Both the position numbers and the translations under genes were made by a program. Below the pieces are notes generated by a model. It saw only the letters and a program-made list of their open reading frames with translations, did not search any database and was not told where the DNA came from. Below, piece by piece: positions 2,377 through 55,611 of a stretch of DNA of 64,000 bases. Position 1 is the stretch's first letter, and each line of letters starts with the position of its first letter. The stretch is from Leptobrachium leishanense (Eukaryota; Chordata; Amphibia; Anura; Megophryidae): NCBI GenBank assembly GCA_009667805.1, contig CM019065.1:14768952-14832951 (forward strand), in the 5' to 3' direction.

Positions 2377-3311
2377 CAGGGTTATTCAGAGAGCGATGAA
2401 AAGCAGGAGAATAACTGGAGAAGTGAAAATTCTAGGTCAAAATAGCCAAACCAGAAAAATTCTCCCATTTAACTCACTTTCCAAATTGGCTATTTGGTCT
2501 AAATTGTTCTCTTTTCCTGCCAGTTCTCCTAGCTTTCACCTCTCTCTCAGGGTTGTTCAGAGAAAGGTGAAAACCAGGAGAATGGCAGGAAAAGAGAACA
2601 ATCTGGACCAAATAGCTGATTTGGAAAGTGAGATAAGGCTAGGGTCAGACTAACGCATTTTTCACAGCGACCTTCAAAAAGTGCCTCCGAACGCATTGCC
2701 TTATTTTTTCACGGAATGCGCGAAAACAGTCATACGATGCGCATTTTTGTGCGTGATTTTTTACGGATCCAAACCAGGAAACTTTGGGTGTCTGGACGTT
2801 ATATTGGCCGGACATGAGCAGGGTCTGACGTCTCCAAATCACGCCGCTAGTGGACGCAGCGCACTCTGTACGTCCGTACCAGCGGTTCTGCGTTCTCGAA
2901 AAAATGTGTTCATTTTCCACCTGCGTTGCGCAGCCGGACGTTCGTGCGACCGTACTTTGTATATTGGCCATCATTGTCCGTTATTTGCTGATAGTGCGGC
3001 CGTGATTAAGTGCGCCTAAACGCATGTTAAAAATTCGCTAGTCTGACCCTAGCCTAAATGGGAGAATTTTTCTGGTTTGGCTATTTTGACCTAGAATTTT
3101 CCATTCTCCAGTCATTCTCCTGCTCTTCACCGCTCTCTGAATAACCCTGACAGGGTTATTCAGAGAAAGGTGAAACTCAGAAGAATGACTGAAGAGAAAA
3201 TTCTAGGTCAAAATAGCCGAACCAGAAAAATTCTCCCATTTATCTCACTTTCCAAATCGGCTATTTGGTCTAGAATTTTCCATTCTCCAGTCATTCTCCT
3301 GCTTTTCACCG
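2377..3311. repeat. Tandem palindromic MITE units (CAGGGTTATTCAGAGA ends)
   Basis: About three copies of a 170-190 bp unit lie end to end (2377-2560, 2549-2636 continuing at 3055-3149, and 3150-3311). Each has ends CAGGGTTATTCAGAGA / TCTCTGAATAACCCTG and an inner palindrome built on TTCTAGGTCAAAATAGCC and GGCTATTTGGTCTAGAA. The middle unit is split by the MITE at 2637-3054. The last unit is cut off by the hAT 3' end that follows. Relatives are at 20736-20917 and 45151-45328. Confidence 0.7.
2637..3054. mobile_element. Harbinger-like MITE, copy 2
   Basis: The ends are GGCTAGGGTCAGAC and GTCTGACCCTAGCC with a clean TAA duplication on both sides. It is inserted inside an older palindromic MITE, whose sequence resumes after it. 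It shares the internal ACGGAATGCGCGAAAACAG-type and TATTGGCCATCATTG-type segments with the other copies. Confidence 0.88.
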
Positions 3312-6374: not shown

Positions 6375-6856
6375 ATTTTGTTGAAACATCAGTTAGGTCA
6401 TTTTTGCTGCTGTTCCTTTTCCATGTTTTTTTTTTTAATTTAAAGTTTTTTATTATGTAACAAATGTCAGCATAGTTCCAGACAGTGAAATTTGAGGGTC
6501 GCCCTAGAACACCCAAGGCAATCAACAGTAACTCACTCAAAGAGAAATAGTAGAAGCAAACAAATAAGAGTCACCAAATAACAATATGTCTCAGTGGAGG
6601 GGGGTAATGGAAATGGGGGGGGGACGGACAGCAAGAGTCCGCAGATATAATGCAGGAAAAATAAAAATCTGCTTTTACTCAGCAAAAATGGGGTTTCCGG
6701 GAGGCGGGCCAAGTGGATGGCGGCTTTTGTTTGAGCTCCGTACCGAGCCGTCGAGAACACCCCTGCAGCTTGAATTTCAGGCACTTCCCTGACGGCTTCT
6801 TAGAGTGGGAGCTCATTCAGACCACTGCCCGGGGCGATATTTAACTGACCGAGTTA

Positions 6857-7281
6857 GGCTAGGGTCAGACTAACGCATTTTTCACGTTGTCCGTGAAAAT
6901 GTGCGTTCGAATAATGGACGTATTTTTTCACGGAATACGCAATAGCGGTCATACTATGCGCAGTTTCATCCGTGATTTTGTACGGATCATCAATAAAACA
7001 CTTCTTGCATCTGGACGTTATGTTGGCCGGACATTAGCAGCGTCTGATGTCTCCAATTCACGCACACACGCCGCTAGCGGACGCAGCGCACTCTGTACGT
7101 CAGTACTAGTGGTTTAACGTTCTCAAAAAAATGCGTTCATTTTCCACTTGCGTTGCGCAGCCGGAGTTTTGTGCGACCGTACTTCGTATATTGGCCGTCA
7201 TTGCCCGGCATCTGCTGCTAGTGCGGCCGTGATTAAGTGCGCCAGAACGCGCGTTCGCACTGCCTCAGTCTGACCCTAGCC
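6857..7281. mobile_element. Harbinger-like MITE, copy 3
   Basis: The inverted ends GGCTAGGGTCAGAC / GTCTGACCCTAGCC are flanked by TTA on both sides. The inside follows the family pattern (a TTTTTTCACGGAATACGC segment near 6927, TACTTCGTATATTGGCCG near 7180). Orientation is the same as copies 2, 5, 6 and 8. Confidence 0.9.
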
Positions 7282-7336
7282 TTAAGGTCCGCTCGCACGC
7301 GGTGCCACGTGTTGCGGCCATCTTGGAGATAGCATT

Positions 7337-22400: not shown

Positions 22401-25400
22401 GCCGAAATGTTGCTGCTAGTTGGATTTAAACAGAATGGAGTGCTGGATTCCTTCCTCTTCTGTTGAATTTCATGTGAAGTTTTAAAACAGAAGAATCTGT
22501 GTTCTGGGCGCCACCTAGTGGTTCCTTTCACAATTGTTCATGTGTTGAGGGTTAATTAACCCCTCAAGACCTTTTAAGAGCAGAAAAAAAAAAAAGCAGC
22601 AATAAAATTGTGAATATTTCTCACAGTAAGGCTAGGGTCAGACGAGCGCAGTGCGAACGCGCGTGCAGGCGCACTTAATCACGGCCGTAGTAGCAGCAAG
22701 TGCCAGGCAATGACGGCCAATATACGAAGTACGGTCGCACAAAAGTCCGGCTGCGCAACGCAAGTGGCAAACGAACGCATTTTTTCGATAACGTAAAACC
22801 GCTAGTACGGTTGTACAGAGTGCGCTGCGTCCGCTAGCGGCTTGTGTGCGTGAATTGGAGACGTCAGACGCTGCTAATGTCCGGCCAACATAACGTCCAG
22901 ATGCACAAAGTGTTTTATTGATGATCCGTACAAAATCACGGACGAAAATGCGCATCGTATGACCGCTATCGCGTACTCCGTGAAAAAATGCGTCCATTCG
23001 TTCGAACGCACTTTTTCACAGACAACGCGAAAATGCGTTCGTCTGACCCTAGCCTTAATCAGCAGCTTGTCCGTTCACTCGGGCTTATCCCTAGAACCCA
23101 GTTAGAAGCATAAATAGAGAAAAAATGTGGCGGGACAGGCGCTTCCTTCACAATGACAGGGATGTCCTCACTTAAATGACAGTTCTCCCCTCTGTTGGAT
23201 GAGTGTAAACCTCAAACAGAACAGAAAACAAAAATAATGGTACAGTATGTCAAGGCAGTATACTATTAAAATAAAGATAAGAGGATTGCACTCACATGGT
23301 GTGGTGTCTTAGTATCAGACACCAGATGTTTATAGCGGCTGGCAGAATTATGGAAGGAACGCCAGACTTCCCTTGGTGGTGCTCCAACGTCTGTGGTGGT
23401 CCTCCAATCTTTGGGTACTCCAAGAGCCTTGATGTTGTTTCAGTATCCGTTCCCCTGATCCTCAGCAGCAGTGTAGATCACAATCATGTGGGGTACAGCA
23501 GCCAGGAAACAGGAAGAATAGGGACAGCAAGCAAGGTATAATGGGATTTATTGGTATAAAATAATTAAAATAATCTTGGTACATCCAAACGCGTTTCGCG
23601 GTATGAAGCCGCTTCCTCAGTAGATGTCGCTCAGGACATCTACTGAGGAAGCGGCTTCATACCGCGAAACGCGTTTGGATGTACCAAGATTATTTTAATT
23701 ATTTTATACCAATAAATCCCATTATACCTTGCTTGCTGTCCCTATTCTTCCTGTTTCCTGGCTGCTGTACCCCACATGATTGTGATCTACACCGCTGCTG
23801 AGGATCAGGGGAACGGATACTGAAACAACATCAAGGCTCTTGGAGTACCCAAAGATTGGAGGACCACCACAGACGTTGGAGCACCACCAAGGGAAGTCTG
23901 GCGTTCCTTCCATAATTCTGCCAGCCGCTATAAACATCTGGTGTCTGATACTAAGACACCACACCATGTGAGTGCAACCCTCTTATCTTTATTTTAATAG
24001 TATACTGCCTTGACATACTGCACCATTATTTTTGTTTTCTGTTCTGTTTGAGGTTTACACTCATCCAACAGAGGGGAGAACTGTCATTCATGTGAAGTTT
24101 TGTCTGGCCGCTCCTTGGTTCTTAGAGCACTCATCTGACCAAGAACTGATTAAACTTGTGCACAACCCTTCATATGTTTATTGTGCATAAGTAACACAAT
24201 TATTGTTGGGGTTGAGTGTAATGGATTCATAGAAGTTCTCTGATTAATGAATTGCTGTTTTTCCTTTCCTCAGCTTTCTGATTAAGGCCCTTAACAGTGA
24301 AAACTGCTTATGGATGTACAAAATGGCTCATGGACATAACAACAAGAGCCTTCTTGAAGCAACTCTGCGGTATATCAGCTGTCACATAACCTCTGTTTCT
24401 GAAGCGGACGACTTTCTTCATCTGCACTTGACAGACTTGACCAAAATCCTTTCTGCAGACAGTCTGATGGTCCCTTCAGAGCATTTTGTGTACCAGTTGG
24501 CATGTCGATGGTGGGAATTAAACAGAAGTCACCACGCTTGTTTTCCGGAAGAACTTTTGAGAGTCATACGCTTGCCTCTCATGAGTCCACAGGAGCTGAG
24601 TGAAGTCGGGGAGTATATCGATTGGCAAGGACATATGAAGCACACAAAAGGCCTTGAGCTCCGTCAAGGTATGTTTGAAGAAAGAATAGTCTGCATGGAC
24701 CTTCGGGCCAGAGAAGACCTGCAGCTTAATGTTGAAGATTTCCAGCTTGACTCGTACGATCCAGTTTCTGGAGTTTGGGAGAAGATACCTTCACTGAAAT
24801 CCCTTATGTGTCCTGGATGTTTGACTGTAGGGCACTGTTTGTATGTAACTGGTGGAATACATCAAGACGATTCCTTTTCCAGCACACTTCACGTATATGA
24901 CTCTATAAGCAATGACTGGAAGCAGTTGCCATCTATGGGTGAATCCAGAGCAATGCATGGTTTTCTAGCTCACAATAGGAAGCTGTATGCAGTGGGTGGA
25001 TCGAATGTCAAGGGCATCATTGATTCAGTAGAATATTACAGCATTGATGACAACTACTGGGTCACGTTGTCCAATTTACCATTACCATTGTGTCGCTTTG
25101 CGTTTTCTCAGATTAACGATAAACACTATGTAATTGGTGGAGAGACCAATGGAAGAGACTGTGTAGAAGAACACCAAGGATTTCTTATATACAACACAAT
25201 AACTGATGTATGGAGCCTCTTCTCTCTTAATGTAGTGTGTTCATCAGCAGGTGCAGTGGCAAGTGACAATAAAATATTTGTGATAGGAGGTTGGACTAAC
25301 TCGGAGAAATCTACTTCGTGTATGATAGCCACTTCGCGGTGCTTTTGCATGGATCATTTAGGGCGACTATGTTCCACATGCCCGGTTCCATCACTTCCTG

Positions 25401-25660
25401 TAGGTCTTGCTTCAGCAGGTGTGGTACGTTGGAAGCAAAGAATTTATGTTTTGGGTGGAGAAAACCAAAGGAAGTTTAGTAACCGGATTTACTATTGGAC
25501 GCCGGGTGCTTCTGAGTGGACGCTTTGCAACGAAAAACTGCCAGTTCCTTATCAAGGTGTGAGTGACTTTGGTTGTGTTACTTTAAAAGTCCCCAGGAAG
25601 TGTCTCCATTCTCTTATACCTGGCAGGAAGAGAATGGGTGGACAACTTGCATCCTCTTAA
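10481..25660 (+). CDS. Kelch-like BTB-BACK-kelch protein (588 aa, four coding exons)
   Basis: Joining 10508-10580, 17335-17413, 21113-21340 and 24274-25660 gives 1767 nt, that is 588 codons plus stop. Every junction is GT-AG and all phases agree. The BTB/POZ domain spans about residues 34-131 (CDVTLVTDV, FKCHRIVLASVSPYFQAMF, LQFIYSGEI), BACK about 136-240 (FVYQLACRWWELN), and kelch repeats about 287-575 with GG pairs at about 320, 368, 415, 465 and 521. Such proteins usually serve as substrate adaptors for Cullin-3 ubiquitin ligases. The start at 10508 has no competing in-frame upstream ATG in the exon; the exon begins at 10481. I cannot name the ortholog among KLHL/KBTBD genes. The gene looks intact, with no stop or frameshift. 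Its introns are almost entirely repeats, including a 914-bp palindrome in intron 3. UBL5 follows in the opposite direction. Confidence 0.93.
10508..10580 (+). CDS. Kelch-like gene, coding exon 1
   Basis: The acceptor TTTTTGTAG precedes 10481 and the donor GTAGGT follows 10580. The exon codes for the short acidic N-terminus (MEMFSDYEPPSTEHYV...) and leaves one base of a split codon, which fits exon 2. Confidence 0.88.
10581..11790. other. Intron 1, first part; one short dispersed repeat
   Basis: At 10765-10885 lies a piece of the dispersed CAGATGTTTTTGATCTACAA / CTCCCATG family with a G-run. Relatives are near 31640, 38050, 38815 and 43922. The remaining sequence is pyrimidine-rich and not recognised. 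Confidence 0.4.
11790..12785 (+). mobile_element. L2-type LINE remnant, 5' part
   Basis: Broken frames read like the linker and early reverse-transcriptase part of an L2 element: HYNATLSS, ALFLAMRAHYNALFHNPK, SVTEQEISKILLSFHPS and ISLLPFTSKLLKACVRN. The last corresponds to the conserved RPVSLLPFLSK-like motif. Many stops and frameshifts show it is old. The match stops at about 12785 and a later RT part of the same kind resumes at about 16070. Confidence 0.65.
12786..12980. mobile_element. Hairpin-chain segment, left part
   Basis: GC-rich sequence with the hairpin GCTGACATCCTAGATGTCAGC at about 12947, nearly the same as the hairpin near 120 in the element at 1-1926. It is interrupted at 12981 by a hAT element and continues after 15220 (ACTGGGATTCCCCTGCCCAG). 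This suggests another relic of the TTAA foldback family. Confidence 0.5.
13270..13640. repeat. Minisatellite, about 55-60 bp units
   Basis: About six imperfect copies of a unit like CAGCAATAAAACTCACAGTA followed by ATGTGCAGTGTGTATGAGCG. Two neighbouring units (about 13400-13515) are nearly identical. A relative in opposite orientation occurs at about 15610-15705. Confidence 0.85.
13574..13598. repeat. (TG)n microsatellite
   Basis: About twelve uninterrupted TG units inside the minisatellite. Confidence 0.95.
14440..14800 (+). mobile_element. Diverged copy of the CAGGGTTATTC 0.9-kb element (internal part)
   Basis: The segment GCAGTGCAAATCCCCATAGA through GCAATATCTAATAAACC and the pyrimidine-rich stretch after it match the middle of the elements at 18067-18964 and 27898-28763. 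Both ends are missing or diverged. Confidence 0.65.
15035..15110 (+). mobile_element. SINE 3' part
   Basis: CAGTACATACTTGAAAATTT through GTATCCTTCCTGGTAAAATA matches, on the opposite strand, the body of the tRNA-derived SINE at 63370-63570. The tRNA-like head is missing here. Confidence 0.6.
16070..16440 (+). mobile_element. L2-type LINE remnant, later RT part
   Basis: Degenerate frames read VFGLLFSTYTASLKK (compare the usual [12 protein letters not shown] box) and ALGITFDSDLTFTPHIQ, both standard L2 reverse-transcriptase segments. This is probably the continuation of the remnant at 11790-12785, split by the insertions between them. Confidence 0.65.
16448..17131. repeat. Composite repeat region with TATCGG-type and CAGTG-type ends
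   Basis: It starts with CTAGTGGTCGACCGATTTTA and TACCGATAATCGG palindromic words typical of hAT-like termini. A GC-rich stretch follows, then CTAGGTACGTCACTG at about 17117-17131, which is the reverse of the CAGTG(A/G)CGTA end type also seen at 21750. Exact element borders are unclear. No gene was recognised in 16560-17334. Confidence 0.4.
17335..17413 (+). CDS. Kelch-like gene, coding exon 2
   Basis: 79 nt with acceptor CTCTCGTTAG and donor GTATGC. It codes for the first BTB segment, LYLAELLCDVTLVTDVKRFK, and ends in a split codon completed by exon 3. Confidence 0.93.
17705..19340. mobile_element. Large inverted-repeat element with a MITE in its loop
   Basis: The arm 17705-18000 and the arm 19010-19340 are inverted and diverged copies (shared words: AAATTATTGGTGTCACCAAC versus its mirror, GGTGAGCGAACGCTGTTCTAGA versus its mirror, TTCTACACCACACTAA on the left and TTAGTGTGGTGTAGAA on the right). 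The element at 18067-18964 is inserted between them. No coding capacity is seen. Confidence 0.7.
18067..18964. mobile_element. CAGGGTTATTC inverted-end element, copy A (898 bp)
   Basis: The ends CAGGGTTATTCAAAGAG and CTCTTTGAATAACCCTG are perfect inverted repeats. Copy B at 27898-28763 is highly similar along its length, including GCCTGTTCGAGGGCAGTGAA and the TTTTTGCGGGTTTTGG-type right half. There is no transposase frame. The superfamily is unresolved; a TA-type target is possible. Confidence 0.88.
20198..20586. mobile_element. hAT-like MITE with TAGGGATGCA ends (389 bp)
   Basis: The ends TAGGGATGCACGATACC and GGTATCGGTGCATCCCTA are inverted. Next to the right end is a short TATCGG-rich run. 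I could not find a clean 8-bp target duplication. Confidence 0.75.
20736..20917. mobile_element. Palindromic MITE with CAGGTCTATTCACTAAA ends
   Basis: It starts CAGGTCTATTCACTAAATGC and ends TTTGTTTGAAAAGACCTG. The inner segment is the TTCTAGGTCAAAATA / CCAAATTGGCTATTTGG palindrome shared with 2377-3311 and 45151-45328. Confidence 0.75.
21113..21340 (+). CDS. Kelch-like gene, coding exon 3
   Basis: 228 nt between acceptor TTTCTGCAG and donor GTAATA. It codes for most of the BTB fold (IVLASVSPYFQAMFTSTLQ ... VLQFIYSGEITLGLDSAKEL) and the link into BACK. Confidence 0.95.
21750..22290. repeat. CAGTGGCGTAACTAG-type repeat with internal palindrome
   Basis: It begins CAGTGGCGTAACTAGAAACC. Inside, 21955-22085 is mirrored by 22078-22165 (ACCACCTGACCAGCGC versus GCGCTGGTCAGGTGGT; CGGCCGTTTTTCTCCCTACG versus its mirror). 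The right end was not found. Confidence 0.55.
22630..23054. mobile_element. Harbinger-like MITE, copy 4 (reverse orientation)
   Basis: The ends GGCTAGGGTCAGAC / GTCTGACCCTAGCC are flanked by TAA and TTA. Internal segments match the other copies on the opposite strand. Confidence 0.9.
23175..24088. repeat. Nearly perfect 914-bp palindrome (454-bp arms, 6-bp spacer)
   Basis: The left arm runs from AATGACAG at 23175 to AGATGTC at 23628, the spacer is GCTCAG, and the right arm runs from GACATCT at 23635 to CTGTCATT at 24088. Positions mirror exactly with no length change across the whole span. The few mismatches I could find are A on the left against G in the mirrored right arm. The centre holds CTGAGGAAGCGGCTTCATAC followed by CGCGAAACGCGTTTGG, a motif seen elsewhere in the window. 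It lies in intron 3 of the kelch-like gene. Confidence 0.95.
24274..25660 (+). CDS. Kelch-like gene, coding exon 4 (BACK and kelch repeats)
   Basis: The acceptor CCTTTCCTCAG precedes 24274. The exon stays open to TAA at 25658-25660 and supplies about 462 residues: the BACK domain and all kelch repeats (LYVTGG, LYAVGG, HYVIGG, IFVIGG, IYVLGG). Blade spacing and the GVWEKIP / DWKQLPSM / VWSLFSL / EWTLCNEKLP tryptophan motifs are typical. Confidence 0.96.
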
Positions 25661-32092: not shown

Positions 32093-32670
32093 CAGTGTTT
32101 CCTGACCCTGTCCTCGGGGATCACTAACAGGCCAGGTTTGCAAGATAGCTGAAGATTAGAATACAGGTGATATGATTTGTTGCTCAGTGATTGCAGGATT
32201 CTGTCTGCATTTCCCCAAGGGAATCATTAAAATCTGGCCTGTAAGGCTAGGGTCAGACTAACGGATTTTTTGCGTCGTCCATGAAAAAGTGCGTTTGAAC
32301 GAATGGACGTATTTTTTCACGGAATACGCGATAGCGGTCATACGATGCGCATTTTCGTCCGTGATTTTGTACGGATCATCAATAAAACACCTTTTGCGTC
32401 TAAACGTTATGTTGGCCGGACATTAGCAGCGTCTGACGTCTCCTAATCACACACACACACCGCTATGCGGACGCAGCGCACTCTGTACGTCAGTACTAGC
32501 GGTATCACATTCTCGAAAAAATTGCATTTGTTTGCCGCGTGCGTTGCGCGGCCGCACTTCGTACATTGCCCGTCATTGCCGCTACTACGGCCATGATAAA
32601 GTGCGGCTGCACGCGCGTTCGTCTGACCCTAGCCTGAGTGGGACCTGAGGACCAGGCTTGGGAAACGCTC
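32093..32670. mobile_element. hAT-like MITE carrying Harbinger-like MITE copy 5
   Basis: Related to 30960-31416, with ends CAGTGTTTCCTGACCCTG and CAGGCTTGGGAAACGCTC. It is the uninterrupted reference for the TTAA insertion but is itself split by the MITE at 32244-32634. Confidence 0.75.
32244..32634. mobile_element. Harbinger-like MITE, copy 5
   Basis: The ends GGCTAGGGTCAGAC / GTCTGACCCTAGCC are flanked by TAA and TGA. It is inserted in the hAT-like MITE 32093-32670. Confidence 0.9.
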
Positions 32671-32996: not shown

Positions 32997-33432
32997 GGCT
33001 AGGGACAGATGAGCGCATTTTCTGCGGCCACCGTCAAAATGTACGTCGATGCGTGCGCACGCATTTTTTCACGGAATACGCTTAAGTGGTCAGACGATGC
33101 GCAATTCTGGACGTATTTCATGACGGTGGGGTAAAAAGAAGTCTAGGGAAATCCGGCTGTTTGAACGTTATGTAGGCCGCACACTAGCAGCGTCTGACGT
33201 CTCCTAATCACGCACACACGCCGCTATGCGGCCGCAGCGCACTCTGTACGTCAGTAGCAGCGGTTTCACGTTCTGATAAAAATGCGTTCATTTGCTGGTT
33301 GCGTGGTGTCGGCGCACTTTCGTACGCACGTACTGCGTATATTGGCCGTCATTGGCCGTTATGTGCTGCTACTGCCGCCGTGATTTAGTGCGCCTGCACG
33401 CGCGTTCCGACTGCCCCACTCTGACCCTAGCC
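32997..33432. mobile_element. Harbinger-like MITE, copy 6
   Basis: The ends are GGCTAGGGACAGA / CTGACCCTAGCC with TTA on both sides. It is inserted in the piggyBac element. Confidence 0.88.
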
Positions 33433-33996
33433 TTACTCGTTTATGCAACCCACACATATTTTACACTGTTTTTCTCACCATTAAATGGACTTTATAAAGA
33501 TACCATTTTTTTCATCACTTCATATAATTTACTATAAAAAACATTGTGAAATATGACAAAAAAAAAAATTGAAAAAACACAATTTTTTCGAACTTTGACC
33601 CCCAAAATTTCTTATGTATCAACAACCGTCAAAATTTTTTAATTCCTTAGTAGTTTCTAAATTTAGCAATACCCAATGTTTACATATTGCTCGCTTTGCT
33701 CCTTATCTTAAGCAACAATAAGTGAAAGTAGCACTTTGCCATTTACAAAGGGTTTACTTTTAAAAGTAGTCATAGTGACATTGTAACACTGATATCTGTC
33801 ACTAATTCCTGAATAACCCTCCACATATACATATTTTTTTAAAGTACACAAATCAAGGTATTAAACTTGGGGTATTTTGACTCTTTCCATGCAAACCATT
33901 TTACCACAAATCTATGCCAAAGTTTGAGAAAAAAAAAATTTTGGTGATTTTTTTTTTTGGAATGCAATTTAAGAATACATGTACTGTGAACTTTAA

Positions 33997-34423
33997 GGCT
34001 AGGGTCAGACGAACGCAGTTTTAACGTGCATTTAGCCGCACAAAATCACGGCCGTGCTAGCAGCAAATGACGTCCAATGCCGGGGGAACATACGACGAAC
34101 GGCCGCACGAAAGTTCGTCCGTGCAACGCAAGTGGCAAACGAACGCATTTTTTCGAGAACGTCAAACCGCTACTACTGACGTACAGAGTGCGCTGCGGCC
34201 GCATAGTGGCGTGTTTGCGTGATTGGGAGACGTCAGACGCTGCACACGTCCGGCCAACATAACGTCCAGACGCAAAAGGGTTTTATTGATGATCCGTACA
34301 AAATCACGGACGAAAATGCGCATCGTATGACCGCTATAGCGTATTCCGTGACAAAATACGTCCATTCGTTCGAATGCACTTTTTCACGGACAACGCGAAA
34401 AATGCGTTAGTCTGACCCTAGCC
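33997..34423. mobile_element. Harbinger-like MITE, copy 7 (reverse orientation)
   Basis: The ends GGCTAGGGTCAGAC / GTCTGACCCTAGCC are flanked by TAA on both sides. It is inserted in the piggyBac element in the opposite sense to copy 6. Confidence 0.9.
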
Positions 34424-34432
34424 TAAGGTTTA

Positions 34433-35762: not shown

Positions 35763-37068
35763 TCACGCACAGTGTGATACATCTTGAAACAGTCCAAGAC
35801 ACAGACCGGGTTGTCCAGGGCATTCTGGGCAGTAAAAGATTGTGTCTCTCCTCTGCCCCCTCTTGAAACACACCCTGCATCTTTTTTGGGGTTTCTGTTT
35901 GCCCTCAGCCCCAACTCTGTCCCCCATCACCGCCCGGGGAGCAGGTGCATCCTGGTACAAAAACCCCGAAATGACCTGGAGCTGAAACTATAAAAAGGAC
36001 AGCGTCACTCCGGGGTTTGCCTTTTTGCAGAGCAAAAAGGCATTGTGGGTTGCAATTTGCATCAGGTAAATTGCAACCTTTTTGTACAATGCCCTTGACT
36101 TCCACATAATCTGGTAGGGCTGGAGCAGCTGATCTGCCAGATCAAGCCCACCCATATGCCGGTTATAGGCTTTGATGCACACTGGCTTCCTGATGCACTC
36201 AGCTCTGCCACGTACAGAGACCTCCACAGACCTCTCAGTGTGGATGGTGGATAGAAGGTATACATCCTTCTTGTCTCTGTACTTGACCGCCAACAGCTCC
36301 TCCCTTCCCTTGTATTTCATTAGGGATTCATCTACGCAGATATTCCTTCCAGGTGTATAAGCCTCTGCAAACCTGGCGCCGAAGTGGGTAATCAGGGGGC
36401 GGATTTTATACAGCCTGTCAAACTGGGGATGCTCTCTAGGGGGGCACAGGCTGTTGTCACTGAAGTGCATGAAACGCAAAATGTTTTCATACCTTCTACG
36501 TGACATTGATTGGGGGTAAATGGGGGTAGAGCAGATGGGGCTACTGCTCCAGTAGGAGCGAATTGAGGGCTTCTTTATGATTCCCATCAGCATAGTAAGT
36601 GCCCAGAATTTCAGAAATTCTGGCACATCTAGCGGGGTCCATTGCTGCCTTGCCAAGTAGGAGTCTGGCTTCGCAGCACAATGCTGATGGGCATACAGAT
36701 TTGATTGGGCAACAATGTGGCCCAACAAATCATCCCCCATAAACACCTGCAAAAACTGTGGTGGTAAATCCTGCAACATCAATATTGATGCCAGGATTTG
36801 CCGTTAAATGAGGGATATCTGGCCTCTGGCCATGAGGCACTACCCACTCCTCAGCTGGAGCTGTGCGTCTCCGGCTGGCAGGTGGTTGCCCAGGATCTGC
36901 ATCAGAAACATCACTAGGAGATACATCAGCCAGCATAGATGATGTATCTAGCGATGTCTCTGAGCAGTTAGCGGGGTCAAAATCTGGGTCGGAGTCCGAC
37001 GCAGATCCCTCAGATTCTGACACCAGGATGGCATATGCCTCCTCGGCGCTGTACACCCTCTCAGACAT
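35763..37068 (-). pseudogene. piggyBac transposase, internally deleted and frameshifted
   Basis: The start MSERVYSAEEAYAIL at 37068 is followed by an acidic, Ser/Asp-rich N-terminus, usual for piggyBac transposases. A frameshift falls near 36730-36780. The second frame holds FLKFWALTMLMGIIKKPSIR, RRRYENILRFMHFSDN and NICVDESLMKYKGR, which carries the first catalytic Asp. It then jumps directly to KYRDKKDVYLLSTIH and YNRHMGGLDLADQ, which carries the last catalytic Asp. The stretch between, which in intact family members holds the second Asp near a DNFYTS-like motif, is missing. After an in-frame TAG the C-terminal cysteine-rich finger (CRVCFKRGQ ... CPECPGQPGLCLGLF) is preserved. The enzyme cannot be active as written. 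Confidence 0.9.
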
Positions 37069-49309: not shown

Positions 49310-50382
49310 TGTTATGGCTAACTGACCGGGTATTTAGATGATGACTCGACAAAAGAAATGCCAGACGGAGGCCTTGATTCTTGAAAGGAAAAAAGGTTTT
49401 ATTCGGTACCGGATGAGAGCTGCAAGTCTTGCTCACAATCAAAGCTCAAGTCCCGAGCCAACAGAAACAAAGAATTTATACATTGCAAGTAAAAATGCAC
49501 ACCTTATTCCCCTCCCCAGGTTACCCTCCCACTTCTCATATCAACCTTCATTATACATATTGGACTTTATTCATCATTTTGCAAGTCAGCAAGGTTCACC
49601 TCAAAGACACGACCCTTGAGCCCACCCGAGACAATCTGAATTCTCTGTCTAGTCAATAAGGTTGTAAAAGGGAATCATTCTTCCAAAACAAATATGGCCA
49701 GCTACAGGATTTACTCATTCCTTCCGCGGCCTTGATATATTAAGCCAACTTTTACGGTTTAGCTAGCAATATTTAGAGACCTGCGGAGGGAGAAGAGGTA
49801 ATTCTTCAGTCAGCAGAAATCAGGTTTAAAACAAGATATTAGAGGCTACACTGAGGCTAGGGTCAGACTAACGCATTTTTCACGTTGTCCGTGAAAAAGT
49901 GCGTTCGAACGAATGGACGTATTTTTTCACGGAATACGCAATAGCGGTCATACGATGCGCAGTTTCATCCGTGATTTTGTACGGATCATCAATAAAACAC
50001 TTTTTGGGTCTGGACGTTATGTTGGCCGGACATTAGCAGCGTCTGACGTCTCCTAATCACGCACACACGCCGCTAGCGGGCGCAGCGCACTCTGTACGTC
50101 AGTACTAGTGGTTTCACGTTCTCGAAAAAATGCGTTTGTTTGCCGCTTGCGTTGCGCGGCCGCACTTTTGTGCGACCGTACTTCGTATATTGGCCGTCAT
50201 TGCCCGGCATCTGCTGCTAGCATGGCCGTGATTATGTGCGGCTGCACGCGCGTTCGCACTGCCTCAGTCTGACCCTAGCCTTAGCTATTAGTTTATACAG
50301 TTCTATTTTCTATCAAAAATGGTGGACAGGGAACAGAGAGGGTGACGCTGGGGGTTATTGAATCCCAGGTAGCGCTCTTTCA
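49310..50382 (-). mobile_element. 3' LTR of the endogenous retrovirus (with a nested MITE)
   Basis: Read on -, a purine tract AAAGGAGGGAA is followed at 50382 by TGAAAGAGCGC, and the block ends ...TAACA at 49310. A TATAAA lies at 49480-49475 and AATAAA at 49403-49398, in the order expected for U3-R-U5. Removing the Harbinger-like MITE (49855-50280) leaves about 645 bp. No second LTR is visible because of the gap at 54109-54208. Confidence 0.7.
49855..50280. mobile_element. Harbinger-like MITE, copy 8
   Basis: The ends GGCTAGGGTCAGAC / GTCTGACCCTAGCC are flanked by GAG and TTA. It is inserted in the retroviral LTR. Confidence 0.9.
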
Positions 50383-50524
50383 TTCCCTCCTTTGGCGGAG
50401 AGTCATAAAGTGATCTCTCCTAGCCAACTTACTCTATATCATTAAAGATTTATAATCAGTAGGGGTTACTTGGCTCATTGGATGGTAATTCGAAGTGTCC
50501 CCCAGGGCCTATCTTCTGGCTTCA

Positions 50525-51657
50525 TGAATTTATGGCAGATTGGCCACAGACACATGGTTAACTTGTAGGTTAGTGCACAGATAAGAAGAATTAGTATACC
50601 AATGAGGATCAGGGACCCTACCCCGGAAATAGCAGTTAGGATTGAGCCAAACCATGACCCAAATGTACCCCAGATAGGACACTTTCTCTTGGTGCTTGAG
50701 AATTACATCAAAATATTCAGGTACATCATCAGTAGCTGTGCGGAGATAAGTACTATATTCATATTGTATCGTCATTTCACACATTCCATTTAATACAGCC
50801 TGGATCTGTTTAATAGCTATTTTCTGATATAACTTTAATTTACGAATTTCTCGGAGCTCCGCATTCAACAGTTGGATGTCAGCAATAGTAATATTCACAA
50901 TTTCATCCTTTAGTACAACATATTGATTAAGCCTTCTCATCATTTCAATGTCCCATCCTGTGAAGGAAGGAAACCAGAACCAGGCCATATCACCTTTTGG
51001 AAAAACAGTTCTCGCTAGGCAAAATTTAAGGAATAACGTGGGTGTGGTGTCCCTAGGTCCAGGGTATCACCTTGGATCTGCTGCAGGGGTACTACCCAAG
51101 CCAAATAACACCACGTCTTTATATCAGTATTTATCCACATGTGACATAAAGGTTCCGCAACAAACCATTGCTTGGAGACTATTTCCCAATGCCCCTGGAT
51201 CAGATACATCTAGTGTTGCATTAAACAAGGATTCTTTACACATTGAACTAGGTGGGGCCTGATTTTTCTTTAGTTTAAAACACCATAAAGGGAAGTAAGC
51301 CCAATTATTGATCTGAATAGTGTGGTATGTTTTTGGCATAATTAAGCTCTTAGTCAGTTTAAGGACACTAGGTGCCACCACGCTTTTATTAACCGGGAAA
51401 CTGGGCAAGTTAAGGGGTACCGCTAAGGTAGGGATAACTGATGACCCTTGGTTCAATTTGTTACAAACCCAACAAGATTCATATCCTGATTTCTTTGCAT
51501 ACGCATACGTAAATTTAATAAGCAGTTTATCCTCTGGTCTTGTCAATTCTCGTTTCCGGCGATCCTGTGCCGGTAGGACAGTCACATCATAGTCTGGTGT
51601 CAACACAGTTGGGGTTGGCAGCAATCCCTTAGGGAACTGGATTGGGAAAAAGTTCAA
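50525..51657 (-). pseudogene. Endogenous retrovirus env relic
   Basis: It follows pol on the same strand and precedes the LTR, as env should. The part 51657-51124 has two cysteines in a CWVC motif and several potential glycosylation sites. After an in-frame stop at about 51124 the same frame continues at 50988 with a heptad-like stretch, typical of a transmembrane subunit. A strongly hydrophobic anchor-like segment near 50690-50560 is readable only in another frame, so a frameshift lies in front of it. The protein cannot be made as written. The closest retroviral genus was not determined; its neighbour pol looks gammaretrovirus/epsilonretrovirus-like. Confidence 0.7.
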
Positions 51658-51974
51658 CAGAAAGTGTCAAAACTGTCAAAAATAAAACAATAATCCCAAT
51701 GCATATAAGGATCCTTTGGTACTGTTCAAATGGTCTTTTTAACCTCTTAAAAATAGTATCTGGAAGCAGAGGCTCATGGGCCTCCTGGGGTACCTCTGGA
51801 GCTTCCATTTGTGGCAGTGTATCAAGTTTAACTGCCTTTCAACAAAAATTGACACAAAGACTTAGGTGTAGGAGATAAGCGGTCAACCAGACTTTTGATC
51901 CACTTATTCGTCTCTGGTCTGTGCGGCTGCTCGGGTACGGTGGAATAGCTTCAGCGGTTTAGATTCACTGGCTA

Positions 51975-54108
51975 TCACTTTCCAAGGGGAATCCGCATCC
52001 ACAGCAGCACCTCAGCAACTTTCACTGCTCTGGGAGTGGATAACAAGACAACATAAAAACCTCTCCATTTAGCCCCTAACGGGTCTACCTTCCATTCCTT
52101 AACCCATACTGAGTCCCCAGGACAATATCTGTGTAAAGGTAGGTATAGAAAATGTGGTATGTGTTCATTAACCCATGTGTACATGCTCTGCATCGTCTGA
52201 CCTAACCTGATCACTTGCTGGCGTAGGTCAGTTTCTCCTAATATCCGGGGATCCCCCCTCAACCCAGTTATCAAAGGGGTGTGCTGACCGAACATCATCT
52301 TGTATGGGCTCAATTTTAGGAGTGAGGTAGGACTGCTTCTCACGTGCAGTAGAACAATTGGCAACACATCCAGGCATTTCAGTGATGTTTCTTGGCATAT
52401 TTTAGCCATCAATGTCTTTAGAGTTCTGTTCATTCGTTCTACTTTTCCACGGCCTTTTTTTTGGGTCGGTATGCAGGGTGCAGTTTCCAGGCGGTGCCCG
52501 ACAGGTGGGCAAGTTGGTGCAGGCAGTCTTTGATGAAGGCTGGGCCATTGTCTGACCTGATTTCGAGTGGCAATCCGTATCGTGGAATAATGTCTCTCAA
52601 GAGGCACCTTACTACCTCTGCAGTCTTTTCTGTTCGGGTTGGATAGGCCTCGACCCATCCAGTGAGTGTGCATACCAGCACCAATAGGTATTTGTATCCT
52701 CTGCATGGTGGGAGAACAGCAAAGTCAATTTGTAGAGAGGACATTGGAGATAGTACTCCTGGTGGTTGTACTAACCCTTGCCTTGGGTTGTTCTTAGCAC
52801 AGGTGACACATTGTTGGGCAATTACTCTGCAGATGGAGGTGAGTCCAGGAACGTAGAAGTGCGGTTCTAGTTGTTGCTCCATGGCTGTCTTTCCTCCATG
52901 TGTTCTGGAAGGCAGGGCCCGGACAATTTCTGGTGCCAGGGTGGCTGGTAGGACAATTCTTTCATTCTCCAACTGGTACCATCCGTCTTCTCTGTATTCT
53001 CCCGGCTCTTCGGGGAGCCATTTCTTCTCCTTTTCAGAGTAGGCCGGAGTCCAGTGAGTAATGGGTGTTGGTAACAGGGGTGTCACTACTGATAGAAGTC
53101 TTTTGACATACTTGGGTATTCTGTGCTTCAGAGCATATTCAGACAGTGCATGTTTTTCATGTTCATTCTGTACAGCCGGCAGGGAATGCTTCAAAGCACT
53201 TTCTTTCATATTTTGCAGCTGGTCTTCAACCAGTATCTCTTTCAGGAAGAACTTCACCAGCGGAGCTTGGTATTGTGCAGTCCCCAGTTCTCCCATGCTT
53301 TTCACAATTTGGGTAATTCTCAGGTTATTGTGGGTGTTGGTATTCAAATTGGAGAAGCGTGTCGAAAAATTTGAGTCTCGTATCACTTCTATCTCCTCTT
53401 CCCCCACTAATTTTACGCCGAAGAAATTCAGCATCAGCTTGTAGGCTCTACGGAGTCTTTGTTGGATTTCAGCGGTGTTCTTCATAATTTCAATTTCAGA
53501 AGTAGTTAAAGGTTGTGCATGTGCATTCTGGCCTTGTTCACACAGGGGAAACAGCCATTGAATATAATTGTGTTTTTTCTCTAACAGTTCATATTCACTG
53601 TACCAGTGGCAAAGAATGTCTTCAATAAATTCTCCATGAGGTGCAAATCTTCTCTTATGCCTAACGTTGACTTCTATATGAATATCTTGAAGCGCAGTAT
53701 TTAGACAGAGCAGAGTTTCGACTTTCATTTGCGTTGATACGGGTTTACATACCGGAATCTTGATACGTGAGTCAACTTGAACCAGTCCTCTCTGGGGAAC
53801 CAAAGTTTCTGTTCGGTGTTCTGGATTTCTATTCCGGAAGCTTTTCAAGTGATTCTCCTGTTGCTGTCGAGTTCTCTTGGCATTGGTTTCTTTCCAATCA
53901 CAGCCACGCTCAAGGGCTTGTGTCTGTCTTGCTGCTTCCTTTGCCACTTGATCTGCTTTATGGTTTCCTATGGAAACTTCTTCTTTGCCTTTCTGGTGTC
54001 CTCGACAATGTATAACACCAACTGCGGACAGTTTCCACACCGCATCTAGAAGCTTCAGTATTTCAGGAGCATATTTGACTTCTTTACCTGCGGAGGTCAA
54101 GAGGCACG
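51975..54108 (-). pseudogene. Endogenous retrovirus pol relic: RNase H end, OGFr-like domain, integrase
   Basis: The frame enters from the gap. Residues just after it form the end of RNase H (APEILKLLDAVW, VIHCRGHQKG, GNHKADQVAKEAAR). Next comes about 255 residues matching the OGFr_N domain (separate entry). Then integrase follows: the zinc-binding region with THGG and CVTC, the catalytic core with LQIDFAVLP and IRSDNGPAF (first two acidic residues) and, after a frame change in a run of eight A/T at about 52450, GKVERMN (the third acidic residue) and the C-terminal domain to 51975. The RNase H-to-integrase frame is open for more than 550 codons, so the copy is fairly young. The reverse transcriptase, protease and gag are not in the window. 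Confidence 0.88.
53135..53899 (-). CDS. OGFr_N-like domain embedded in retroviral pol
   Basis: Between RNase H and integrase, in the same open frame, lies a domain with the hallmarks of the opioid growth factor receptor N-terminal family: PHGEFIEDI, then HNYIQWLFPL, then PLTTSEIEIM, RLRRAYKLMLNFFGVKL, RFSNLNTNTHNNLRIT and MGELGTAQYQAPLVKFFLKE. The order and spacing are those of OGFR/OGFRL1 proteins. No introns are present. OGFR in vertebrates is a nuclear-associated protein that binds met-enkephalin and restrains cell growth; whether this copy keeps any such activity is unknown. Some lentiviruses and related viruses carry a dUTPase at the same place, so the site tolerates extra domains. The domain frame has no stop. 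Confidence 0.87.
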
Positions 54109-54208
54109 NNNNNNNNNNNNNNNNNNNNNNNNNNNNNNNNNNNNNNNNNNNNNNNNNNNNNNNNNNNNNNNNNNNNNNNNNNNNNNNNNNNNNNNNNNNN
54201 NNNNNNNN
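54109..54208. other. Assembly gap (100 N)
   Basis: One hundred undetermined bases, probably a gap of unknown true size. The retrovirus enters it on one side and an L2 fragment on the other, so the upstream pol, gag and 5' LTR may be missing from the assembly. Confidence 0.99.
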
Positions 54209-54787
54209 TGAGTTGTTTTGTGGTGACAGCGGTAAGAAATGGCCGAATTCTGGAAATATTACGCAGTTGGTATCAGCAGGAGGAGGAAAGAGACTTGATG
54301 TGGGGATGAAGGAAAGAGCAGAGTCAAGTGTAACTCCAAGACAGCGAACTTGGTGGGTGATACCCTCCACCATGATAGAGAAGTCAGGAGGTAGGGAGGC
54401 ATTGGAGGGAGGAACAAGTAGGAGTTCAGTCTTTGACATGTTGATCTTTTAGGTGGTGGGAGGCCATCCAGGAGGAGATGCCAGATAAACAGTAACTGAC
54501 TTTTGAAAGGACAGGGGAGAGAGATCAGGGGTAGAGAGGTAGATCTGAGTGTCATCAGCGTAGAGGTGGTAATTGAAGCCAAAGCTGTTGATGATTTTGC
54601 CCAGGGAGGAGGTGTAGATGGAAAAGAGCAGAGGACCAAGGACAGAGCATTGAGGTACACCAACAGATAGAGGCAATGAGGAGGAGGAGTTACCAGCAAA
54701 GGAAAAACAGAAGGACCTGTTGGATAAATAGGATTCGACCCAAGCGAGTGCAGTGTCACCGAGACCCAGAGAGTTGAGGGTCAACAT
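54209..54787 (-). mobile_element. L2 LINE reverse-transcriptase fragment
   Basis: On - the frames read [31 protein letters not shown] and [19 protein letters not shown] (YADD box), then after a shift VRCLGVTLDSALSF. The usual VPQGSVLGP is VPQCSVLGP here. It runs into the gap. Confidence 0.85.
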
Positions 54788-55480
54788 ATCTCAGAATTGT
54801 TCTAATCTTTGTGTTCTCACTGCCACAAACTATTTTGGGGGTCTCATTTCTACAAAATATATGGGAATTGTTCTAATCTTTTTGTTCTCACTGCCACCAG
54901 TAATTGTGGGGGTCTCATTTCTACAAAATATCTGGGAATTGTTCTAATCTTTGTGTTCTCACTGCCATCAGCAATTGTGGGGGTCTCATTTCTACAAAAT
55001 ATCTGGGAATTGTTCTAATCTTTGTGTTCTCACTGCCATCAGCAATTGTGGGGGTCTCATTCTACAAAATATCTGGGAATTGTTCTAATCTTTGTGTTCT
55101 CACTGCCACCAGCAATTGTGGGTGTCTTATTTCTACAAAATAACTGGGAATTGCTCTAATCTTTGTGTTCTCACTGCCACCAACTGTTTTGGTGGTCTCA
55201 TTTCTACAAAATATCTGGGAATTGTTCTAATCTTTGTGTTCTCACAGCCACCAACAAATTGTGGGGGTCTCATTTCTAGAAGATATCTGGGAATTGTTGT
55301 AATATGTGTGTTCTCACTGCCACTCATCAGGGGGTCTCACTGATTTATAGGTGGTTTCTGGGAATTGTAATTTGCGTCTTGTCACTGCCACCCATCAGGG
55401 GGTCTCACTGATTAATAGGAGTTTTCTGGGAATTGTAATCTGTGTCTTGTCACTGGCTGCCAGCTATCAGGGTGTCTCAC
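54788..55480. repeat. Minisatellite, about 62-64 bp units
   Basis: About nine close units of the pattern GGGAATTGTTCTAATCTTTG, TGTTCTCACTGCCACCA and GGGGGTCTCATTTCTACAAA, decaying after 55260 into two looser units (TGCCACCCATCAGGGGGTCT). It ends just upstream of the hAT coding start and may be its 5' non-coding region. Confidence 0.92.
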
Positions 55481-55611
55481 TGAGTCATACCAGAGTTTGG
55501 AATCTTTAATCTTTAATACCAGAGTTGAATCAAGTTCTGCAGCATATCTCCAATTTTTAAAACAGAGTTGAATCAGAGTTCTGTATATCTTTAATCTATA
55601 TATCATTTACC

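What the first reader, a model, noticed from the sequence alone, without database searches (positions are those of the whole stretch)
53135..53899. A retroviral pol frame carries an opioid-growth-factor-receptor (OGFr_N) domain between RNase H and integrase
Seen: one open frame on - runs from RNase H (VIHCRGHQKG) through HNYIQWLFPL, RLRRAYKLMLNFFGVKL and NTHNNLRIT to the integrase zinc region and LQIDFAVLP. Known: the middle block is the signature of OGFR/OGFRL1 proteins; some lentiviruses have a dUTPase in this position. Inference: a retrovirus captured a host OGFr domain, which may be released or used as part of Pol. I do not recall a description of this arrangement, but I cannot check the literature.
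Basis: partly seen in the sequence, partly recalled or inferred. Interest (0 to 1): 0.95.

Follow-up and report, generated by a model that had tools for sequence, protein, structure and literature searches.

The report
Retrovirus wearing a captured frog gene
A retrovirus family in a toad genome (likely the Leishan moustache toad) carries part of a host growth-control gene inside its polymerase protein, likely captured once from a host messenger RNA; selection has kept it, and it is predicted to be delivered into newly infected cells, where it would interfere with the host's own growth brake.

Summary
Confirmed and extended. The window frame holds RNase H, a strong OGFr_N domain (PF04664, E 3.6e-64) and integrase. 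It is no one-off: in the window's own genome (3.54 Gb, likely Leptobrachium leishanense) all 150 scored OGFr matches pass the cut-off, from 5,871 first-look candidates. In 47 copies read closely, integrase follows OGFr in 47 and RNase H precedes it in 44. All 47 OGFr domains form one clade beside the Leptobrachium host OGFR, apart from Pelobates. Host introns are missing and five early-branching copies keep host N-terminal sequence: one capture from spliced RNA, later trimmed. Three OGFr-less sister copies show the empty site. OGFr dN/dS is 0.06-0.18 in 14 of 16 chosen pairs, so selection kept it. Six of ten copies tested have LTR pairs 0-3% apart. The ancestral RT/IN cleavage-like motif lies after OGFr and a second conserved motif before it; release by the viral protease, and interference with host OGFR's G1/S brake, are inferred. 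Eight literature searches listed no description.

The parts
53120..53656 (-). OGFr_N domain (PF04664), captured host OGFR segment inside pol
   Evidence: hmmscan E 3.6e-64, 216.6 bits, profile 15-193 of 208; tblastn 53093-53653, 88% to the lineage B OGFr piece
53921..54103 (-). RNase H, C-terminal part only (cut at the assembly gap)
   Evidence: PF00075 22 bits, below its cut-off; 89% to the lineage B RNase H piece
53657..53920 (-). Linker between RNase H and OGFr; in this sub-family possibly a decayed remnant of the host OGFR N-terminus
   Evidence: in-frame linker read; alignment to the host N-terminus is weak here (p 0.02), clear in copy L054
53060..53089 (-). Motif VVTPLLPTPI at the OGFr-integrase junction; counterpart of VVAALIPAPL at the RNase H-integrase junction of OGFr-less copies (likely RT/IN protease site)
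   Evidence: cleavage itself inferred
52757..53077 (-). Integrase N-terminal extension and H2C2 zinc region
   Evidence: PF17921 29 bits; 91% to the lineage B piece
52436..52768 (-). Integrase core (rve)
   Evidence: PF00665 54.3 bits; 74% to the lineage A piece
51987..52133 (-). Integrase C-terminal domain (MLVIN_C), in another frame
   Evidence: PF18697 44.4 bits in the frame 51975-52724
50437..51838 (-). Env-like region, broken into pieces
   Evidence: tblastn 57% and 74% to the long ORF after integrase of copy L011; no Pfam env match
49391..50383 (-). 3' LTR, matched in two pieces (49391-49852 and 50288-50383)
   Evidence: blastn 87% and 91% to the LTR of copy L011
49854..50283 (.). About 430-base interspersed repeat inserted in the 3' LTR
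   Evidence: 80-94% matches, some partial, at other places in the window; the LTR match breaks there
54109..54208 (.). Assembly gap (100 N) that cuts off the 5' part of the provirus

Best explanation
A gammaretrovirus-like endogenous retrovirus family carries, in frame between RNase H and integrase, a segment of the host's opioid growth factor receptor that was likely captured once from a spliced OGFR messenger RNA, is kept by purifying selection, is predicted to be packaged with Pol and cut free by the viral protease, and would act in the newly infected cell as a competitor of host OGFR. SHOWN: the order RNase H-OGFr-integrase in dozens of copies; one viral clade beside the Leptobrachium host gene; absence of the host introns; host N-terminal sequence in five early-branching copies; three OGFr-less sister copies with an empty site; OGFr dN/dS of about 0.06-0.27; LTR pairs from identical to about 3% apart in six of ten copies tested. 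INFERRED: (1) capture went through a co-packaged spliced host mRNA and illegitimate template switching into pol just upstream of the RT/IN site, followed by trimming of the host N-terminus; (2) protease cuts at the retained VVAAL(L/I)-PAPL motif after OGFr, so integrase keeps its own N-terminus, and probably also at the new (K/R)(V/M)L(P/L)C motif before OGFr, freeing a ~25 kDa domain (otherwise it stays as a C-terminal tail of RT); (3) the freed domain, which lacks the OGFR C-terminal part, competes with host OGFR and loosens its G1/S brake, which would suit a virus of the gammaretrovirus kind that needs dividing cells.
For: Domain order and scores. Many copies: 150 of 150 scored, from 5,871 candidates; 23 of the 120 listed rows carry PF04664 with a pol domain, all 23 from L. 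leishanense. Order: (OGFr then integrase zinc piece in 47 of 47, RNase H piece before it in 44 of 47; spacing in frame in 42 of 47 and 35 of 44). One origin: 27 predicted proteins, 100/100; 47 copies, 100/99; viral copies plus the Leptobrachium host gene apart from Pelobates and the rest, 99/95. Host introns inside the domain near residues 161, 183 and 233, none in the copies. Host N-terminus in L054 (E 3e-6; 0 of 2,000 shuffles as high), L006, L005, L050, L067. Empty site in L070-L072. Selection: medians 0.11-0.18, 14 of 16 chosen pairs with finite OGFr dN/dS 0.06-0.18, highest upper bound 0.38; ML omega 0.170 (13 A copies) and 0.266 (7 B copies) against RNase H 0.062 and 0.122. 49 of 65 host-invariant residues kept in at least 90% of copies. 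Fold: pLDDT 92.9. Low confidence (pLDDT under 50) at both candidate sites. Recent copying. OGFR as a G1-S inhibitor: passages of PMC8363427.
Against: No protein, cleavage or phenotype was measured. OGFr changes two to three times faster at the protein level than RNase H or the integrase core in lineage A. The OGFr fold has no confident PDB match, so its biochemistry is unknown, and the opioid role rests on mammalian work. The upstream motif was found in 34 of 47 copies and not in 13, the window among them; its pattern was written after seeing the linkers and the shuffle control ignores kinship; no cleavage rule of this virus is known. The model also has a low stretch inside OGFr (262-266) and pTM is only 0.49. 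The copies were drawn by their OGFr match, so retention across the whole virus family is not measured; some may be two haplotypes of one insertion. Copies with deletions in OGFr exist and some have multiplied. Of the first branch (L001, L006) only L006 shows host N-terminal sequence, and the forks that order the early copies are partly weak.
Confidence: 0.55

Rival explanations
1. The OGFr domain stays covalently attached and works as an adaptor of the polymerase or integrase complex, for example a nuclear-import or chromatin tether, and is never released.
For: It sits in Pol next to integrase in all 47 copies read; OGFR is described as acting at the nuclear membrane (PMC10377280 passage); the model shows a compact domain between two linkers.
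Against: OGFr-less sisters have VVAAL(I)PAPL (VVAARIPAPL in L071) directly between RNase H and integrase, and the same motif is kept downstream of OGFr, so the likely RT/IN cut leaves OGFr off integrase. A tail on RT is not excluded.
Confidence: 0.3
2. The OGFr insert is a neutral passenger that amplified because the family is prolific.
For: Copies with deletions in OGFr also multiplied; OGFr evolves faster than RNase H and the integrase core; 11 of 47 copies have a stop in OGFr.
Against: dN/dS 0.06-0.18 with upper bounds of at most 0.38 in 14 of 16 chosen pairs, the other two being saturated; 36 of 47 copies free of stops in OGFr; 49 of 65 host-invariant residues kept. The deletions read in L074-L077 also take all or part of the integrase zinc piece, so those copies are defective rather than OGFr-free versions of a working virus.
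Confidence: 0.04
3. The arrangement is a one-off insertion or an assembly artefact.
For: The window copy abuts a run of N.
Against: The same order at dozens of places on chromosomes and unplaced contigs, with LTR pairs in 6 of 10 tested.
Confidence: 0.01
4. The OGFr domain does a job for reverse transcription itself (as dUTPase may in a similar place in some lentiviruses) through an old, non-opioid activity of this domain.
For: Same slot upstream of integrase as the dUTPase of non-primate lentiviruses (PMC8278194 passage); a relative of the fold in a giant virus; residues kept by host and virus include YIQWLFP and HNNLRIT.
Against: No known enzymatic activity; fold searches gave no confident match.
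Confidence: 0.15

Closest known systems
Transduced cellular genes of acute retroviruses (v-src, v-sis; recalled, and named in the abstract start of PMC13297096 listed)
   Same: A host coding sequence taken up without introns and carried by a retrovirus.
   Different: Here it lies inside the pol frame beside RNase H and integrase, has diversified with the virus and is under purifying selection; classic oncogenes are young and mostly replace viral genes (recalled).
dUTPase of non-primate lentiviruses and of betaretroviruses (PMC8278194 passage)
   Same: An extra domain carried with pro-pol; in non-primate lentiviruses also upstream of integrase.
   Different: The domain is OGFr_N, not dUTPase, and its donor is a recognisable amphibian host gene.
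Host OGFR (P0046)
   Same: PF04664 domain; 51% identical to the lineage A reference and 53% to the window copy, 65-67% to copies L001 and L005.
   Different: The host gene has introns within the domain and host N-terminal sequence that derived viral copies lack.
OGFr-like protein of Marseillevirus LCMAC202 (A0A481YX38)
   Same: A viral protein with the same predicted fold (E 6.9e-7).
   Different: A 186-residue protein of a giant virus, 19% identical; presumably an independent acquisition.
Invading ERVs reported in L. leishanense (PMC10435555, passages seen)
   Same: Ongoing retroviral invasion of this species is reported there.
   Different: A term search of the main text found 'opioid' 0 times and 'captur' 0 times; supplements were not read, so whether it is this family is not known.

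Membership tests
Gammaretrovirus-like (class I) endogenous retrovirus | Gag matrix of the p15 type (PF01140) | tested here: met
   3 of 3 tested 5' ORFs of other copies, 42.7-45.9 bits against 30; the window copy lacks its 5' part
Gammaretrovirus-like (class I) endogenous retrovirus | Integrase with MLV-type C-terminal domain (PF18697) and pol closest to gamma-like ERVs | tested here: met
   44.4 bits in the window; nearest OGFr-less pols are ERV proteins of lizards, a caecilian and others, many with the same C-terminal domain
Gammaretrovirus-like (class I) endogenous retrovirus | Paired LTRs | tested here: met
   6 of 10 copies tested; fetch limits were guessed, so the 4 misses are not evidence of absence; in the window only the 3' LTR was found
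Gammaretrovirus-like (class I) endogenous retrovirus | Gamma-type Env | tested here: inconclusive
   3 long ORFs after integrase, each with CWVC and a membrane-spanning-like stretch, none with CX6CC, no Pfam env match
Gammaretrovirus-like (class I) endogenous retrovirus | Primer-binding site and target-site duplication | not tested
   not examined
OGFr_N domain family (PF04664) | Score over the curated cut-off | tested here: met
   window 216.6 bits against 22; 150 of 150 scored places; 3 of 3 copies rescanned, 245.5-266.9 bits
OGFr_N domain family (PF04664) | Residues invariant in vertebrate OGFR | tested here: met
   49 of 65 kept in at least 90% of 47 copies
OGFr_N domain family (PF04664) | Binding of met-enkephalin | not testable with these tools
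   -
Transduced host gene | No introns, although the donor gene has them in the same stretch | tested here: met
Transduced host gene | Phylogenetic nesting beside the host gene | tested here: met
Transduced host gene (acute oncogene type) | Replaces viral genes | tested here: not met
   RNase H piece in 44 of 47 and integrase zinc piece in 47 of 47 copies beside OGFr; Gag_MA in 3 of 3 tested
Pol-embedded dUTPase | dUTPase domain | tested here: not met
   Pfam scan of the window frame and of 3 copies gives OGFr_N and no dUTPase

The most novel reading that the evidence does not exclude
A retrovirus turned a host growth-control receptor domain into a permanent, selected part of its Pol polyprotein: captured once in the megophryid lineage, trimmed from a longer N-terminal piece of OGFR to the bare domain, flanked by two protease sites, delivered inside every virion and used to unlock the cell cycle of the next host cell, in a family that has spread to hundreds and probably thousands of copies and was copying until very recently.
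Probability: 0.35. Interest if true: 0.93.

Novelty: new variant of a known kind. Interest (0 to 1): 0.84.

Why it matters
It is a clear, datable case of a retrovirus domesticating a host gene, the reverse of the usual story, with donor gene, empty site, intermediate forms and a selection record in one genome. It turns the question of what the OGFr_N domain does into a testable one, because a virus has kept just that domain under selection, and it adds a new kind of cargo to the dUTPase-like slot of retroviral Pol.

Full report
OBSERVATION. The minus-strand frame at window 52439-54448 (669 aa) holds, in order, the C-terminal part of RNase H, an OGFr_N domain (PF04664, 216.6 bits, E 3.6e-64), the integrase zinc region and the integrase core. 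MLVIN_C follows in another frame. The OGFr match lies at about 53120-53656. The frame's first part looks like a non-LTR reverse-transcriptase piece (my reading, untested) and is followed by a 100-base gap of N (54109-54208), so this copy is truncated; its env-like part is broken and its 3' LTR (49391-50383) is split by a 430-base repeat.

MANY COPIES. The window lies in a held genome of 3.54 Gb. A host OGFR protein of Leptobrachium leishanense (P0046) matches two of its exons at 100%, and the published genome has 3.5 Gb (abstract start of PMC6895153) and 13 chromosomes (passage), so the species is likely L. leishanense. A search for PF04664 gave 5,871 first-look candidates; 150 were scored and all 150 pass the cut-off. 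I read 47 copies in detail (46 fetched, plus the window; L027 and L049 dropped as duplicates). They were chosen by hand from the list. The integrase zinc piece follows OGFr in 47, and an RNase H piece precedes it in 44 (none in L001, L005, L006). The spacing is in frame for 42 of 47 on the integrase side (5 of those 42 show a stop there) and for 35 of 44 on the RNase H side. Eleven of the 47 have a stop inside OGFr and 36 do not. Some copies on unplaced contigs may be second haplotypes of placed ones. Among predicted proteins, 23 of the 120 rows listed join PF04664 to a pol domain; all 23 are from L. leishanense. No listed row or 84 adds another species.

ONE CAPTURE. In the tree of 27 predicted viral domains and 26 host domains the viral rows are one clade (100/100), and viral rows plus the Leptobrachium host gene part from Pelobates and the rest at 98/88. 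With 47 copies the values are 100/99 and 99/95. The donor was thus an OGFR of the Leptobrachium lineage after its split from Pelobates (assuming a root outside the anurans). The host gene has introns near residues 161, 183 and 233, inside the domain; the copies have none, so the donor was spliced RNA. Five copies (L054, L006, L005, L050, L067) carry sequence like the host's acidic N-terminus, DSWDEEE and following, upstream of the domain (run without composition correction). L054 matches at E 3e-6 and no shuffle of 2,000 scores as high; the others are weaker (E 5e-5 to 0.006), partly broken by stops, and in L005 the match lies over a kilobase upstream. In the tree these five branch early (L006, L005, L067, then L050 with L054 beside lineage B), but L001, sister of L006, shows no such match and several of these forks are weakly supported. 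I infer that the capture began near the host start codon and was later trimmed. In the window's own sub-family the linker resembles a decayed remnant only weakly (p about 0.02).

EMPTY SITE. Searching the genome with an RNase H-integrase protein of a lizard ERV (80 scored of 33,218 candidates) found contiguous matches. Four were read at the junction. Three have no OGFr (L070-L072): RNase H runs straight into PVVAALIPAPLTEWVPVYSE (VVAARIPAPL in L071). In OGFr-bearing copies the same stretch, PVVAALLPAPLSEWTPVYSE in lineage A, comes after OGFr. The insertion thus lies just upstream of it. The fourth, L073, turned out to hold the end of OGFr, which I could not square with its contiguous match. 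L074-L077 are deletion derivatives: L074 and L075 lost the end of OGFr and the zinc piece, L076 and L077 nearly all of OGFr and the first part of the zinc piece; some have multiplied.

SELECTION. NG86 dN/dS medians for OGFr are 0.11 within lineage A (104 pairs, median dS 0.88), 0.18 within B (15 pairs) and 0.16 between A and B (41 pairs with usable dS of 90) (26 of the 47 copies were placed by hand in three sets, 21 were left out). Of 16 hand-chosen pairs, 14 gave finite values of 0.06-0.18 with a highest upper bound of 0.38; two were saturated at synonymous sites. ML omega (GY model): OGFr 0.170 (13 A copies) and 0.266 (7 B copies); RNase H 0.062 (13) and 0.122 (5); integrase zinc part 0.097 (13) and 0.321 (7); core 0.073 (13) and 0.195 (6). 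OGFr is looser than RNase H and the core but far from neutral. Of 65 residues invariant in 24 host proteins, 49 are kept in at least 90% of copies.

ACTIVITY. Of 10 copies tested, six show LTR pairs of 421-686 bases with K2P distances 0, 0.002, 0.010, 0.011, 0.013 and 0.030; four showed no clear pair (nothing, or matches of 45-123 bases), but the fetch limits were guessed. Gag_MA was found in 3 of 3 tested 5' ORFs; the three ORFs after integrase have no Pfam env match but share a CWVC motif and a membrane-spanning-like stretch and are related to each other. Ongoing retroviral invasion of this species is reported (PMC10435555, passages).

HOW IT WORKS (inferred). AlphaFold gives a compact domain (pLDDT 92.9). 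In a 490-residue piece from RNase H to the integrase zinc part (pTM 0.49), pLDDT falls below 50 at residues 148-165, which hold the upstream motif KVLIC (155), at 379-384, which is PVVAAL, at 262-266 inside OGFr and at the end, 483-490. The downstream motif (LL/LI)P.P is seen in 38 of 47 copies by a strict pattern and the upstream (K/R)(V/M)L(P/L)C-like motif in 34 of 47, against a shuffled mean of 0.29; both patterns were written after seeing the linkers and the shuffles ignore kinship. I read them as two protease sites; the downstream one is ancestral. The domain would then be packaged as part of Gag-Pol and act early in the next cell. Host OGFR restrains G1-S through CDK inhibitors (PMC8363427 passage; PMC10377280 passages). 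A domain without the receptor's C-terminal part could compete with it, helping a virus that needs dividing cells (recalled knowledge of gammaretroviruses). This last step is the least certain (about 0.3).

LITERATURE. Eight searches listed no paper on an OGFr domain in a retrovirus; I judged by titles and abstract starts, and several lists were capped (for example 40 of 127 and 15 of 285). Passages were read in PMC10377280, PMC8363427, PMC8278194, PMC10435555 and PMC6895153; no supplement was read. dUTPase upstream of integrase in non-primate lentiviruses is the nearest precedent for the slot (PMC8278194).

VERDICT. Real, recurrent, of single origin and under selection. It is a new variant of a known kind (host-gene capture, Pol-embedded extra domain), with a combination that these searches did not find in print.

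Noticed in passing
window 54209-54790 (-): Beyond the N gap lies a reverse-transcriptase piece (RVT_1, 37 bits, at 54452-54790) that looks like a non-LTR element rather than the provirus; no retroviral RT piece matched there.
   Followed up: partly
window 54782-55483: Array of a ~71-base tandem repeat next to the RT piece.
   Followed up: no
window 49854-50283; also 2636-3055, 6856-7284, 22627-23055, 32244-32559 (partial), 33159-33435 (partial), 33994-34427: A ~430-base interspersed repeat in both orientations; one copy sits in the provirus's 3' LTR.
   Followed up: partly
window 24251-25660 (+): Long ORF with BACK and Kelch repeats, a KLHL-type host gene or exon.
   Followed up: no
window 35988-36803 (-): Transposase fragment (DDE_Tnp_1_7, 168 bits), piggyBac-type by recall.
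   Followed up: no
L074, L075 and, by their match pattern, five or six further places: A multiplied, non-autonomous sub-family in which the end of OGFr and the integrase zinc part are lost; only two members were read.
   Followed up: partly
G000:C899:47573-49099 (part read as L073): Scored as a contiguous RNase H-integrase match, yet its integrase is preceded by the end of OGFr.
   Followed up: no
L011 against L021: Synonymous distance differs strongly between pieces (OGFr 1.2, integrase zinc 0.38, core 1.4), which suggests recombination between lineages.
   Followed up: no
G000:C12:9496638-9497210 (-): A second host OGFR-like locus about 15 kb from the first (92% and 84% on two stretches).
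   Followed up: no
P0016, P0017 (dart frogs), P0019, P0024 (fish): Host proteins with two OGFr domains in tandem.
   Followed up: partly
A0A481YX38, Marseillevirus LCMAC202: A giant-virus protein with the OGFr fold, found by structure search.
   Followed up: no
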